In this document: in pieces, positions 27,301-36,300 of the stretch
How the letters are laid out: the number at the start of each line of letters is the position of its first letter
Position numbering within the stretch: position 1 is the stretch's first letter
Source: Notolepis coatsorum
Lineage: Eukaryota > Chordata > Actinopteri > Aulopiformes > Paralepididae
DNA: 64,000 nucleotides
NCBI GenBank assembly: GCA_963971535.1
Contig: OZ020585.1
Location: 25,469,104-25,533,103 of the forward strand
Reading direction: 5' to 3'
Position numbers and translations under genes: made by a program
The notes under the pieces: model-generated
The model's input: the letters and a program-made list of their open reading frames with translations, nothing else
Database searches by the model: none
Told to the model about the DNA's origin: nothing

Positions 27301-30300
27301 CCTTTGCCTTTGGTTTTATCCCAACAATAGTTTAAATATCCAAGCCAAGGGGGCTAAAAGGCCCACCCCCGTACTCCCTTTCTTAAGCGCAGTGTCCCCA
27401 TTCTTCTCCCTCAGTGTTCCTCCAGAAGACCACTGGAAAACACTCATCTTAGCCCAAGCTCATTTCATCTATATGTACTATTGTGTTTCACTATTAAACC
27501 TATATTGATCATGAAGATCCGTCTACGATCCTAATAGATGAATCCAGTTCCACCACAATACCTTTGCATGTTATGCATTTTATTATTGTAAAACTTGATT
27601 TAAAAGCAATTAGGTTCCAATTAACACATTGGGCGCCGGGGGTTGTGCCCATCATTGTACCCAGTCTGCCACCGTTGAAAGCCTATGGAGATGTTTACCT
27701 TCTTTGCAGGGCTATAACTTTTTAAATTGTATTGCTATATTGACATTACTATGGCCCATTCAACATCGATTATCTATCGTTCAGGATGTGGGAACGTTAT
27801 ATTTTTTCATTCATACATTGTTGTGTTCTGTATCGTTAGTGGCTTAGCTTGGCATCGCTACTGCACTATCTCGCGTACGTGCACGCGTACTGAATAAACC
27901 ACAAATGTACCTCTAATACCAGTATTAGTCTGACCACACCCCTCATCAGCTTACCTTCATAAGCAGGTGTGTGGTCACCTGCTCTCCTCCTTCTCGCTTT
28001 CACCACAAGGAAGAGGTGCCTCGGTAGATCCCCACACTTGACACCATGATGGAAGAAATTGGATTAGGAACAGCTTGGGAAACAAGGATACGTTGACATC
28101 ATATCTTTATTTTCTCTCTCACTATTTTCGAGAAAATACGGCGATATTGTCTTCGTACTGGAGTGTCTAGAAGATGATGATCATTCTAAAAACCCTCCAC
28201 CGGTTTTCGTATTGGGAGCACGCCGCTGCATGCTTCTCAACTGCAGTTCCTTGCTGTGTTTGTTGGGGTGAAACCTGTCAGGCCACAGCTGAACTGTCGG
28301 ACATGCCGCTGTTGTGAGGAGCGGTGCGTTCCAGGTTGGGTGAGTAGTGTTTGCTGGCGGGCTCCACTTGTCTGTTAGTGCTATGGGGGCTACTTGACAA
28401 AGTTTATGGGAACCGGCCCCAGGCTAGGGTCCTTTGTTTAGCCGCCTAGGCGACAGAAGGCCTTGGTCTGGCGACCATTATAGTTTTAACTAGTGGGCCG
28501 CGACCATTGACACTGGTGATCCCTGTGTGTTCTGGACGAGTGGATTCTCTCTGTCACCGTGTTAAGACCCCATCTTTCATATCCAAATGAGAGTATTCCT
28601 TCACGAGGGGATATGTGCATGTAATGTGCGATAGCGGCAGATTCATGTTCAAAGTCAGCTATACAGGCCAGTTGGTACTGTGCTGATTCCGCCGGACGTG
28701 GTAATGTCACCGTTGTGAAGCGGTGTTGACGTCTTGTTTTCTCTTTTCTCTTAAAAAGTGAGGAGGGGTTCAGAACGGCGGCCTGTCTGGGTGAGTGTTA
28801 TGTCATTGTTTACATGTTCATAGCTTACGGTTAGCCGGTCAGTGGCCTGGCGCGGGGTAGCTTAGCTTCTCGCGCGCCGCCGGAAGCTCGCTTCTGATCG
28901 CGTGCGTCGTTAGATCGGCGTCTCGCGAGCGGAAGCAATAGCACCCGAACGGTTGGAGCAGCCGTTAGCTTGATGCTATTCTGTTGAACGTGCTTTGATT
29001 TTAACATGTTTTACACTCTTGACCACGACGTCATCCTTGACAGGGGATGTTCGTCGACCCTGCCTGAGCCTAGACGGGGATTGCGTCAACAAAGAGGACT
29101 GTAGCGACTGGTGGAGCGGCGACGCTGCCCGGATCGAACAACACAGGACGGCTGTGTTCTACGGTGTCTTGTGACTGCACTTCGCTGATCTGCGTTCCGG
29201 GTAGGTACGGGGTTGGCCAGACCTCATAACACGTCTTCTGGTTTTACTTTGCTAAATGTATTGTGAATAACGGTGTTTTTTCCCAAAACGTGTGTTGTTG
29301 CAATGCATTTGGGATACGTTGCGGGTTGTGTGTGAGCTGTTTTTGTCACTGGCAGTTAGCTTCTCCGTGCAGATCGTGATGTATTGATCTGGTTGTTGTG
29401 TGAGAAACATCATGGTGTTTATGTGTACCGTGTACTCACTACTAAGGCAACTAACCTATGAAGCTATGCTTGGTGACAAGTGAGTAAAAGAATGTTCTTT
29501 CTCAGACTGTGATGACAATGAACAGTGAGTTCACACATTAACAGGTTTTCCTGTTTTAACTGGCCGTATTGAGGGTAAAATAGGAGGATTGTGTTCTTTC
29601 CCCCCCGGTTCCCTGGGGACTTTATCACCTCCTATCAGACATGTTGTGCATTAATTGTGTCTTTTGTGTGGTAGGGATACGATGTAACTCTTAGCTTGAT
29701 TGCTGAGGTTGTGCTGAATCTGCTGGAGAAACTTATTTCCTAAAAGGAAATTGGTTTGGTTGCTGTCATGTGTGCTTAGCAAGGCCTGTGGTCGATACTA
29801 ATCAAGAATGATGTATTCTCTCATTGTGAAAAAAACGGCGTTCCTCTGTTGAGTGTTTTTGCCATTTTTTGTAGGTGATGATGGGTTGTGTGTGTCATGT
29901 GACCTACAACTGGGTTGTACTGGCCACAGAAGCACATGTGTATGTTGGACCGGGGTTCTTAGAGCCTTCTCTATTCTGTGTTTTTCCTTAGTAAAAATCA
30001 GATAGCAGGTTAGCTCATGCGCTGTGTGGAGCTGTGAAACGCTTCATAGAGCTGACTATGACTGTGTCATATTCTCTTTTTGTCGTTACGTCGTATCATG
30101 GGTGTGGGGTCGTAAAGGGGTGAACTGGTAACCTTTCCTCTCCCCATTGTTCTGTCGGTCAGGGGTACACCCCCTGTCCTTCAAGGTTCCCGTCACGTGG
30201 TGGTTCGGCACGTTACGGGGGGGGGGGGGGGGGGAGGGAGTTCCTGGTCCCACGGCCTGGTATATTGGGCGTGTGCACCGCAGGAATTCCCCCGCCATAG

Positions 30301-33300: not shown

Positions 33301-36300
33301 CATCATGCGTGAAGGAAAGGGGGGGGGGGGGGGTCGTTTATAATTCCTTGATCGTCAGTAACGGCTTTATTTAGTATGGGTTGATATGTTGAGCAGATGG
33401 TTTGCAGTGAAATGAATAAACAATCGGGCTGAAAATAACATTATATTCCTCTTACCGTTCGCCGATGAGACTGGAGGAAAAAGATCCCAATTATTTGACG
33501 TCGATCTCCTACATCCATTTCCGGTTTGTATGGCGCAATAAACGCCGAAATCATATCGATTATTGCGTTTCGAAAGCGATCGAAATGCACTAGAGTGTTT
33601 GTCTGGATCCACGTAACAAGATATGACTGCCGGAGGGATTTCCTCGATGCACCGATCGCCACTTCCGGTTTTGGCGAGAGTGTAACTCGCCAGACCATCC
33701 ACCAGGCGGCGGTATTGAGGCGTTGCAATCTCATACAGGGTGCCGCTGCAGTCCGGAGGGAGGCTGGATGAATTATGCCATGGCGAAAAAATGAAATATT
33801 GATCCCAAAAACTATTTACGCCGTTGTTGGCGTTCAACGCATGGCGGGCAATAATGACTTACGCCGTTCTTGGCGACCAACGTGTTAAAGGCAGAGTCCC
33901 TTTTACTGGACAGGTATATCTACACGTTTTGACAAATAAAGGCTGGTCTCAATTAGAATAAATTCTAATAGAATCAATTAGGTCTAAATCTAAATTCATT
34001 GTTTTTTGTGGTCACGACGGATGCAGTTTGGTTTTTCTTTGTAGCATAATTTGCAATCATAAGTCGGTAATGAGAAAAAATTGGCAAAACGCAGCAGCAA
34101 GACATATCTGCATTATATCTCACCAGACACCCACACAACGATCGTCCACGATTTAGCACTTCTCCTCGTCATCCCAACAAGCTTGCTAGTACATAATGTT
34201 AGCCAACACAACAACTGCAATTGACTCACCATTAGTGGAGACACTTGTGAAACTGAGTGAAACTGAGTGAAACTCCATCATCGCTCCATTCCTCCCAACT
34301 CTTCTCTCTCGGTATGCGAGGTCAGTGCTAGAGCGGGAGCGCGCCGTCTCTCAAAGCGCGATCAAATGATTCACATGAATATATCTGCATATATTCCTGT
34401 TTACATACGTGTAGTATACATACCCACTCTGTGCACTGTACATACTAGGGCTGCAACGATTAGTCGACGACGTCGATCATAAAAACTCGTCGACGCCGAA
34501 TTTTTGCGTTGATGCGTTGTATACAAAAAATACAAAAAATTCTTTGTGAAAGTGGCTTCTCAGCTCTGGTCCAGCTGAAGACAAAGCAGAGGAACAGATT
34601 GGACATTGAGCATGACCTCAGAGTTGCTTTGTCTACCATCACCCCAGACTTTGAGACTCTTGTCAGGAACAAACAGCATCCCCAGTTATCCCATTAGTTC
34701 CCTGGGATGTTAAGCTAAGAAGTCTGCTAAGAAGGATATATTATTTATTATTATTATTATTTTATTTCATTGTGTTTTTAGCCCTAGTTGCACTTTTGTC
34801 GCAACCCCAGTTATCCCATTAGTTCCCCCAAACGTACTGTCGGTCTGTTATGTTAAGAAGTCTGCTAAGAGCCCGGAAAAGGAGCCGCGCCCACAGGAAG
34901 CAGAGATGGAGGGTGTGACAGAAATAATCATTAGATTAGTCGACTAATCGAAAAAATAATCGACAGATTAGTCGACTACCAAAATAATAGTTAGTTGCAG
35001 CCCTAGTACATACAGTACTATATCTGTATATATCCCTAATGTTATTAGTTATACCGCTGGCCAGTATGGCTTACTACCATCGTATATTCATACTTGTATC
35101 ACTGTACATAATAATACTGTACCATCTTCAATGGGGCCCCTTGATCTCTTACGTCACGACATCTGAATGTAAATGTTACACACATGCCCACTTTACGTCA
35201 ATCCGATGCAATCGTGGACAACAACCATGCAGTATGCAGTACAAATGTGTTATTTTTGCCCATTCTAAAAATGGTGCATTTTAATTTAAACAGCCTTGGA
35301 ATTGTATAAACATGGCTATGAGACTTCTGTGGATCCAATGAGCCCAATTGTATGCATGATGTGTGACGATGAATAAAGCCTAATTAATTAACACGGTTAA
35401 GTTTGGACCCATGCTGCGTAATTTGAATACGGTATGCGTCCGAGGAAAGGACGTTTAGTCGGCCTGGGTGGCGGTATAACTCACGGGCCTGATCCTGACC
35501 GGAAGACAATGGCCGTGGTGAATCGGCAGAAAATAACTACTACTTTTAACTTTTGCGAACAGCAAGAATGACTTGGAATCCACTTTTCTTCTTTTTTTTT
35601 ACATGAGAAATGGGGCAAAGAAAGACAGTTATATTTTCATTCAAACAGCTCATTTCTCCTCATTATACATGTTAATACACCACTGGAGCACGGCCATTTG
35701 ACAATTACAGGAGATAATGTTATCATCCAGTATTTCCACAATCTCAGCTTAGTTAACTCTCTCCAGCAAAACGTGATGACTATTTTCAGTTCAAACCCAT
35801 TACTGTACATGTATGACTCTCTCCTCAACCACGAGCCAAAGGGCGATTTGAAACGGAGGTTCTCGGCTGGTGTGGCAGGCAGCAGGCGTTCCACCGTTCC
35901 GCTGTCGAGCTTCCTGTATACGTTTCACATTCAAGCGGCACAATTTCCTAGGCGACAGTCAAGTACGACAAAATCTAGACTCCCGTCCCCTAGCGACAGA
36001 AAGGAAATAAGAGAGCGAGGACTGTGACTTGAGAGAGCACCTTGATACGCGGCCGAGTGAGATGTCCCGATCTCTCACACGGCGGCATACGTGGCCAAAC
36101 GCCAAACCCTAAGATAACTTCTAAGTGATGGATTGCCGAGACCCGAACGGAGAGAGTGGGGAAGTGCTGACCGAGGTTGCTGACATGGAGCCTGGGCGCC
36201 CTTTTGACATCAGTGTTAACAGACGACGACGTCCACCGTGTAAATACTGTTTGACTAAACCACTTTGTCACCAGAAGTGGGACAGGATCCAAGAGGTGTC

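What the first reader, a model, noticed from the sequence alone, without database searches (positions are those of the whole stretch)
27621..33888. Palindromic element of about 5.3 kb carrying two 5S rRNA-derived segments, inside a piggyBac-like element
Inverted arms of about 165 bp (27846-28010 and 32930-33099) bracket about 5 kb with no protein gene but two same-strand 5S-like sequences (31434, 32213) and a third scrap. The target word GAACGTTA appears at three junctions, and a 281-bp foldback MITE made of the same arm sequence sits at the right. Known: 5S promoters have been captured by SINEs (SINE3 in fish). A large inverted-repeat element with separate 5S copies is not something I recognise. 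Inference: a non-autonomous family that captured 5S DNA, possibly Pol III transcribed.
Basis: partly seen in the sequence, partly recalled or inferred. Interest (0 to 1): 0.8.

Follow-up and report, generated by a model that had tools for sequence, protein, structure and literature searches.

The report
DIRS retrotransposon carrying captured 5S rRNA
The 5.3-kb element with inverted ends is a protein-less jumping gene of the DIRS kind, present in thousands of copies in this genome, and it carries two copies of the small ribosomal 5S RNA, one of which was most likely inserted whole because thousands of related copies still show the empty site.

Summary
The element is 27825-33138 (5,314 bp). It inserts at GTT (26 of 28 right flanks exactly GTT). 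No ORF exceeds 204 codons, so it is non-autonomous. The junction occurs 6,143 times in the host genome; 30 top-scoring copies differ by a median 0.28%. A fetched relative with the same termini has an open 563-codon Gag frame but no polymerase-sized ORF. Both 5S segments have mature-RNA length and no rDNA spacer. The second is present at 2,717 genomic junctions and absent at the same point from 3,687. Best reading: 5S rRNA captured by template switching during reverse transcription. I found no sign of selection on the 5S segments, and Pol III cannot make the whole element RNA. My searches of an open-access library found no DIRS element with 5S. A partner with the same termini that encodes polymerase was not found. 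New variant of a known kind.

The parts
27825..33138 (+). Whole non-autonomous DIRS1-like element (both terminal GTT included), 5,314 bp
   Evidence: Same left tip in 30 of 30 copies with unrelated flanks (exact motif 29 of 30, one changed base in L007); right-end motif in 28 of 30
27825..28010 (+). Left inverted terminal repeat (ITR)
   Evidence: 179 of 188 aligned columns identical to the right ITR
32927..33113 (-). Right ITR
   Evidence: self-BLAST 5103-5289 versus 186-1, 95.2%
33114..33138 (-). Right extension, 25 bp, with hairpin GGTTATGACTATAACC and terminal GTT
   Evidence: not part of the ITR match; repeated in the internal complementary region; hairpin motif shared with RT-encoding DIRS L041
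32805..32846 (+). Left half of the internal complementary region (ICR): reverse complement of the left tip
   Evidence: 42 of 42 bp
32844..32900 (+). Right half of the ICR: reverse complement of the right tip; the halves overlap on AAC (32844-32846), the circle junction
   Evidence: 57 of 57 bp; junction pattern 6,143 genomic sites, reversed control 0
31434..31551 (+). 5S segment #1, full RNA length, 96 of 118 bases like an own 5S gene
   Evidence: RF00001 66.2 bits
32213..32318 (+). 5S segment #2, full RNA length less a 13-nt internal deletion; absent from two Gag-bearing relatives at this exact point
   Evidence: RF00001 55.4 bits
32134..32146 (+). Possible scrap of 5S (first 13 nt); too short to be sure
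   Evidence: read from sequence; alignment
28043..30818 (+). Non-coding interior not shared with the Gag-bearing relatives, which have Gag in the corresponding part
   Evidence: no BLAST match of substance to L035 or L032 between positions 218 and 2995 of the element
32319..32804 (+). Segment upstream of the ICR, the most conserved of the stretches compared between non-coding and Gag-bearing relatives (96%)
   Evidence: 465/484 (L035) and 468/485 (L032) identical
31572..31576 (+). T5 run 20 nt after 5S#1: a Pol III stop signal
27621..33888 (.). piggyBac-like TTAA-ended element into which the DIRS element inserted
   Evidence: TTAA and 11/13 matching tip bases read from sequence

Best explanation
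A non-autonomous DIRS1-like retrotransposon. Inferred cycle, by analogy with DIRS-1: the terminal repeats drive an RNA; a DIRS reverse transcriptase supplied in trans copies it; the internal complementary region bridges the two tips so that the cDNA closes into a circle at AAC/GTT; a tyrosine recombinase supplied in trans recombines the circle into a genomic GTT, giving GTT-element-GTT. Shown here: the terminal anatomy, the GTT target with one GTT in the empty site, the high copy number, the near identity of the sampled copies, and the lack of polymerase-sized ORFs. Its 5S segments are copies of mature 5S rRNA. 5S#2 was gained at one fixed point within the family, most likely when a reverse transcriptase jumped from element RNA to a 5S rRNA and back (inferred). 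5S#1 is older. Both are more likely passengers than promoters (inferred).
For: ICR halves 42/42 and 57/57 bp against the two tips, overlapping on AAC. Published fish DIRS1 elements have nearly the same numbers: GaDIRS1 5,322 bp, GTT/GTT ends, AAC junction, conserved ITR 148, rE 27, ICR 46-56 (PMC3266345 Table 3, section read). Right flank G 28/28, T 27/28, T 27/28. Of 28 loci with both ends, 7 have a repeat copy of the target nearby; the one-GTT join fits 5 of those 7 at 94% or better. L041 in the same genome encodes RVT_1 (E 2.2e-26) and RNase H between DIRS-type ITRs and ICR, shares the junction hairpin motif, and matches the L035 Gag at 37% over 186 aa (E 7e-35). 5S capture: filled junction 2,717 sites, empty junction 3,687, reversed controls 0. 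Gag hits on C1 within the listed range: 5 of 5 with the empty junction, 0 filled (two of the five are L032 and L035). The best-preserved 5S#2 (L031) matches own 5S genes at 110/119 but window 5S#1 at 93/118, so it is not a copy of 5S#1. Flanks agree with rDNA flanks at no more than 11 of 40 bases, about chance; the own rDNA unit is 232 bp, not the 779-bp spacing.
Against: No RT- or recombinase-bearing element with these same ITRs was found. None of 10 RT hits on C1 in range (of 150 listed genome-wide) lies within 3.5 kb of a listed junction; the closest, at 78846424, is 3,523 bp downstream of an empty junction, outside that element if its layout is standard, but I did not read it. One more junction site sampled (L044) was again 5S-type. 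No tyrosine recombinase domain was recognised even in L041. PF05869 (Dam) gave 0 hits in the genome. L030 (25/31) and L015 (one base shorter, 28/30) fit the one-GTT model less well. That 5S#2 was gained rather than precisely lost rests on parsimony and two unfilled relatives read in full.
Confidence: 0.88

Rival explanations
1. DIRS element in which the 5S segments work: they recruit TFIIIA and Pol III (or RPL5) to make a short 5S-like RNA, or act as an RNA tag that aids packaging or nuclear transport.
For: Two independent full-length acquisitions in one family; 5S#1 kept in all 35 elements read across it (30; L031, L032, L035, L036, L040); its box C region differs from the own 5S gene at one base (box position recalled); a T5 stop follows in the window. 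The 100 bp right after 5S#1 are less conserved than 5S#1 itself (65/91 for L035, 77/96 for L032, against 98/118 and 97/118). Cassandra and Ajax are precedents in LTR elements (PMC10886601, abstract and two sections; PMC10853983, start of abstract in a listing).
Against: The 100 bp before 5S#1 and the longer stretches around it are as conserved or nearly so (L035: 86/98, 409/489, 435/536; L032: 85/98, 418/491, 442/540). 5S#2 is partly deleted in the window type and mostly in L040. The segments lie mid-interior, not in the terminal repeats. No expression data.
Confidence: 0.12
2. The 3' half derives from a captured piece of a 5S rDNA tandem array (DNA-level capture), the spacers having diverged.
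For: Two same-strand 5S copies 779 bp apart plus a 13-nt scrap between them.
Against: The own rDNA unit read (1.5 kb of the C29 array) is 232 bp; no similarity of the 40-nt flanks to rDNA flanks; 5S#2 alone is missing, at its exact edges, from Gag-bearing relatives that keep 5S#1 and the sequence between.
Confidence: 0.03
3. Inverted-repeat DNA transposon or foldback element with an 8-bp target word, as first read; or a Helitron/Helentron (3' hairpin, T-rich target).
For: Long inverted arms; hairpin next to the right end; GTT-type target without a long duplication.
Against: Ends are asymmetric; GAACGTTA is not at the ends; internal copies of both tips joined at the junction are the hallmark of DIRS.
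Confidence: 0.02
4. 5S#2 was gained by insertion of a 5S-derived SINE or a LINE-made 5S pseudogene rather than by switching of the DIRS reverse transcriptase.
For: SINE insertion was proposed for the origin of Ajax and Cassandra (PMC10886601, section 19 read).
Against: The inserted stretch is the 5S RNA alone, with no tail and no 7-20 bp target duplication; only the GCT at the left junction is ambiguous.
Confidence: 0.1

Closest known systems
Fish DIRS1-like retrotransposons (GaDIRS1, GaDIRS2, TnDIRS1a; PMC3266345 Table 3)
   Same: GTT start, AAC circle junction, ITR about 165-190 bp in all, right extension about 25-27 bp, ICR about 40+57, size 5.3-5.9 kb
   Different: Ours has no Gag-, polymerase- or recombinase-sized ORF and carries two 5S rRNA segments
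L041, an RT-encoding DIRS element of the same genome
   Same: Same ITR/ICR plan, similar junction hairpin, Gag homologous to that of the Gag-bearing relatives
   Different: Arms otherwise unlike ours (no BLAST match); no 5S match
Cassandra and Ajax (5S-bearing TRIM LTR retrotransposons; PMC10886601)
   Same: Non-autonomous retroelements carrying 5S rRNA sequence
   Different: Those have direct LTRs with the 5S inside the LTR, are 421-860 bp long, and Ajax makes 5-bp target duplications; ours has inverted repeats, 5S in the interior, insertion at GTT and 5.3 kb
SINE3 / 5S-headed SINEs
   Same: 5S-derived sequence in a mobile element
   Different: Ours has no 5S head at the 5' end and is far longer than the 100-700 bp given for SINEs in PMC10886601
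LINE-1/5S chimeric insertions (PMC13174262, passages)
   Same: 5S rRNA joined to a retroelement by reverse transcription
   Different: There the 5S is typically truncated and antisense, in 27 single insertions; ours is full-length, sense and propagated in thousands of copies

Membership tests
DIRS1-like retrotransposon | Inverted terminal repeats with a right extension | tested here: met
DIRS1-like retrotransposon | Internal complementary region near the 3' end, halves complementary to the two tips, overlapping on a 3-bp junction | tested here: met
   42/42 and 57/57 bp, overlap AAC; definition from passages of PMC3266345
DIRS1-like retrotransposon | Ends and target share the trinucleotide of the junction (GTT), no longer target duplication | tested here: met
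   26 of 28 right flanks exactly GTT; one-GTT empty site in 5 of 7 testable loci at 94% or better
DIRS1-like retrotransposon | Encodes RT/RNase H/methyltransferase and tyrosine recombinase | tested here: not met
   Longest ORF of the window element 204 codons, three longest element-strand ORFs without Pfam match; L031 and L036 have no ORF of 200 codons, L032 and L035 only Gag and ORFs under 290 codons, those others not scanned with Pfam. Filed therefore as a non-autonomous derivative, not as an autonomous DIRS element
DIRS1-like retrotransposon | RNA intermediate and circular cDNA | not testable with these tools
   needs expression data or experiments
Non-autonomous partner of an active autonomous family | An RT-bearing element with the same termini in the genome | tested here: inconclusive
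   RT-bearing DIRS-type candidates are many (32,006 first-look, 150 scored), but the one fetched (L041) has different arms; none with the same arms was found in the part examined
SINE3 | 5S head at the 5' end of a short element | tested here: not met
   5S segments lie 3.6 and 4.4 kb into a 5.3-kb element; a LINE tail was not looked for
Cassandra/Ajax TRIM | Direct long terminal repeats containing the 5S | tested here: not met
   repeats inverted, 5S internal
Foldback/MITE DNA transposon | Symmetric inverted ends with a target duplication | tested here: not met
   asymmetric ends, GAACGTTA not at the ends
Dada-5S transposons | Element inserted inside a 5S gene | tested here: not met
   the 5S lies inside the element, not around it; Dada-5S as described in passages of PMC8869645

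The most novel reading that the evidence does not exclude
A tyrosine-recombinase retrotransposon family has taken up 5S rRNA at least twice because the 5S fold or promoter is useful to it: for example the element RNA binds TFIIIA or RPL5, or rides the 5S pathway for packaging or nuclear entry, so that a Gag-only and a protein-less lineage thrive on autonomous elements. This would be the DIRS counterpart of Cassandra.
Probability: 0.1. Interest if true: 0.85.

Novelty: new variant of a known kind. Interest (0 to 1): 0.6.

Why it matters
A phrase search for non-autonomous DIRS elements found no paper describing one, and I found no report of a DIRS element carrying a small cellular RNA (searches; open-access library only). 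The family holds a natural before-and-after record (3,687 exact empty and 2,717 exact filled junctions) of a cellular RNA taken up whole by a retrotransposon. It also shows a protein-less and a Gag-only DIRS lineage side by side, which makes trans-mobilisation by DIRS machinery testable. For annotation, many 5S-like hits in such a genome are likely to be DIRS copies rather than 5S genes (inference).

Tried and rejected
Considered and dropped: foldback/MITE (asymmetric ends, ICR); Helitron/Helentron (hairpin and T-rich target suggestive, but ICR and GTT fit DIRS); Crypton (of the PF00589 hits, the three fetched loci L037-L039 have no meaningful match to the element; L039 looks Crypton-like, a label from recall); apparent inversion of the interior in 12 of 30 loci (artefact: minus-strand loci are not turned by the tool); rDNA-array capture; Pol III transcription of the whole element.

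Led nowhere: ITR as DNA query (0 candidates; the tool skips very common words); PF05869 in own genome (0); Pfam, NCBIfam and PDB for Gag (only a sub-threshold TMEM95 match, E 0.022 and 0.1) and for L041 ORF1; an RT-bearing element with the same ITRs. The 30 copies are the best-scoring of 3,304 candidates, so their low divergence is biased.
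Full report
Observation. The arms, the two 5S matches and the TTAA-ended surrounding element are there. The arms recur with the same layout across the genome: the degenerate tip pattern GTTCTGTNNNGTTAGNGGCNNNGCTTGGCATC has 2,729 forward and 2,731 reverse sites, reversed control 0. The first 100 listed sites form 47 pairs and 6 singles; 22 pairs span 5,004-5,031 bp and 9 span 4,865-4,883 bp.

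Boundaries. The interior 28020-32790 gave 3,304 first-look candidates; 31 were scored, 30 of them full length at 99-100% (the window itself included), and 30 were fetched. After turning the minus-strand loci, every copy starts with the same tip and unrelated flanking DNA (exact tip motif in 29 of 30, L007 with one changed base), and 28 of 30 carry the right-end motif (L020 and L026 do not). The element is 27825-33138. Pairwise divergence of the 30: median 0.28%, mean 0.37%, maximum 1.55% (substitutions). These are top-scoring copies, so the family as a whole is more varied: L040, of the 4.88-kb class, is 95.5% identical over its full length.

Class. The stretch 32805-32846 is the exact reverse complement of the left tip (42/42) and 32844-32900 that of the right tip (57/57); they overlap on AAC. 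That is the internal complementary region of DIRS1-like elements (definition in passages of PMC3266345). In Table 3 of that paper (section read) the three fish elements have GTT starts, an AAC junction, divergent plus conserved ITR of 165-167, right extension 26-27 and ICR 36-46 plus 56-57; ours has GTT ends, AAC, ITR 186-188, extension 25, ICR 42 plus 57. The base after the right tip is G in 28 of 28 copies, then T in 27 and T in 27; 26 are exactly GTT. Of 28 loci with both ends, seven lie in repeats that show the uninterrupted target. With one GTT the join fits 29/31, 30/31, 31/31, 31/31 and 31/31 in five and 25/31 in L030; in L015 a one-base-shorter join fits 28/30. This is recombination at GTT without a longer duplication.

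Coding content. The longest ORFs on the element's strand are 204, 169 and 141 codons, without a Pfam match. Relatives with the same ITR and ICR were fetched: L031 and L036 have no ORF of 200 codons; L032 and L035 carry Gag (split in L032, one open 563-codon frame in L035) and otherwise only ORFs under 290 codons. That this protein is Gag rests on its place in the element and on 37% identity over 186 aa (E 7e-35) to the N-terminal part of ORF1 of L041, an element with DIRS-type ITRs and ICR whose 668-codon ORF matches RVT_1 at 2.2e-26 and RNase H (PF17917) at 1.4e-5. Its junction AACGGTAGGTTATGTAGATAACC resembles ours, AACGTTAGGTTATGACTATAACC, but its arms otherwise do not match, so it is a cousin and not the proven driver. 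A recombinase domain was not recognised in L041, and Dam methyltransferase gave no hit in the genome.

Numbers. The junction ACAGAACGYTAGGTTATGNCTATAACC occurs 6,143 times (3,105 + 3,038), reversed control 0. At about 5.3 kb each this would be up to roughly 1% of the 3.42-Gb genome (inference; many copies will be incomplete). Gag of this type had 12,445 first-look candidates; the 150 scored were all at 98% or more.

The 5S segments. Both span model positions 1-120. In the 30 sampled copies each is present with at most 5% difference (30 of 30 for both; exact in 23 and 21). 5S#1 is in all six elements compared (window, L040, L031, L036, L032, L035). 5S#2 is complete in L031 (88.6 bits) and L036 (75.9 bits), has lost 13 nt in the window type and most of its length in L040, and is missing with exact edges from both Gag-bearing elements: they read GGGCCCGCTCGGCT-GAGGGG (L035) and GGGCCCGCTCGGCT-GGGGG (L032) where the others have the RNA. 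Genome-wide, exact filled junctions number 2,717 and exact empty ones 3,687, controls 0. On C1, of 47 tip pairs 31 are filled, 4 empty and 12 neither; the 5 Gag hits within the listed range are all empty. Of the first 100 junctions, 33 are filled, 34 empty and 33 neither; the one 'neither' site that I could still fetch, L044, was a filled copy with a changed junction base.

Source of the 5S. The best-scoring own 5S genes sit on C7 and C29 (46 of 47 scored, one on C4; best 116.9 bits); in the 1.5 kb of the C29 array that I read the unit is 232 bp, seven genes in a row. L031's 5S#2 matches them at 110 of 119, the window 5S#2 at 96 of 106 plus the 13-nt gap, the window 5S#1 at 96 of 118. L031's 5S#2 matches window 5S#1 at only 93 of 118, so the two are separate captures. 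Likeness ends at the RNA ends: flanking 40-mers agree at 4 to 11 of 40. The 779 bp between the segments is not a multiple of 232. With the exact empty site this points to mature RNA as donor, hence to reverse transcription and template switching (inference). Precedents seen: 5S rRNA is listed among RNAs enriched in MLV particles (PMC4997597, passage), and LINE-1/5S chimeras exist, typically truncated and antisense (PMC13174262, passages).

Function of the 5S. Between window and L035, 5S#1 is 98/118 identical; upstream stretches are 86/98 and 409/489, the next 100 bp downstream 65/91 and the stretch beyond 435/536 (L032: 97/118 against 85/98, 418/491, 77/96 and 442/540). So 5S#1 exceeds only the 100 bp right after it, which is weak ground for selection. 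5S#2 is partly deleted in the window type and mostly in L040. Nine T4+ runs follow the start of 5S#1 on the element strand, the first 20 nt after its end, so Pol III could make only a short RNA. The stretch most conserved between the two lineages is the 486 bp before the ICR (465/484 and 468/485); that stretch, with ITR and ICR, is the better candidate for cis-acting signals (inference).

Known or new. Searches of the open-access library showed Cassandra and Ajax (5S in LTR elements) and 5S-derived SINEs, but in the listings and passages that I saw no DIRS element with 5S. Two papers held all terms of one search; their passages do not report one. Subscription journals and Repbase entries were not searched.

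Noticed in passing
window 21737-26444: A young LTR-type element: direct-repeat blocks 3,976-3,986 bp apart at 99-100% identity, with a 709-codon ORF at 23245-25374 between them.
   Followed up: no
L039 3569-4825 (G000:C6:87965300-87974500): Crypton-like gene (label from recall): a 419-codon frame at a tyrosine-recombinase match (PF00589); the genome search lists seven places with this frame length.
   Followed up: partly
L012 about 7290-7330: A second DIRS right-end motif followed directly by GTTCTGTATCG: possibly one element inserted at the terminal GTT of another.
   Followed up: no
window 28500-29499: CpG observed/expected 1.12 and 0.93 in two 500-bp bins, against 0.32-0.76 in the other bins from 28000 to 32999; could be a captured CpG island or very recent unmethylated sequence.
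   Followed up: no
window 48765-49364 and from 54617 on: Arrays of 25-bp units; the second runs at least to 55710 in the copies shown.
   Followed up: no
G000:C29 129.27-129.79 Mb: Own 5S genes; a 1.5-kb piece of the array shows a 232-bp repeat unit.
   Followed up: partly
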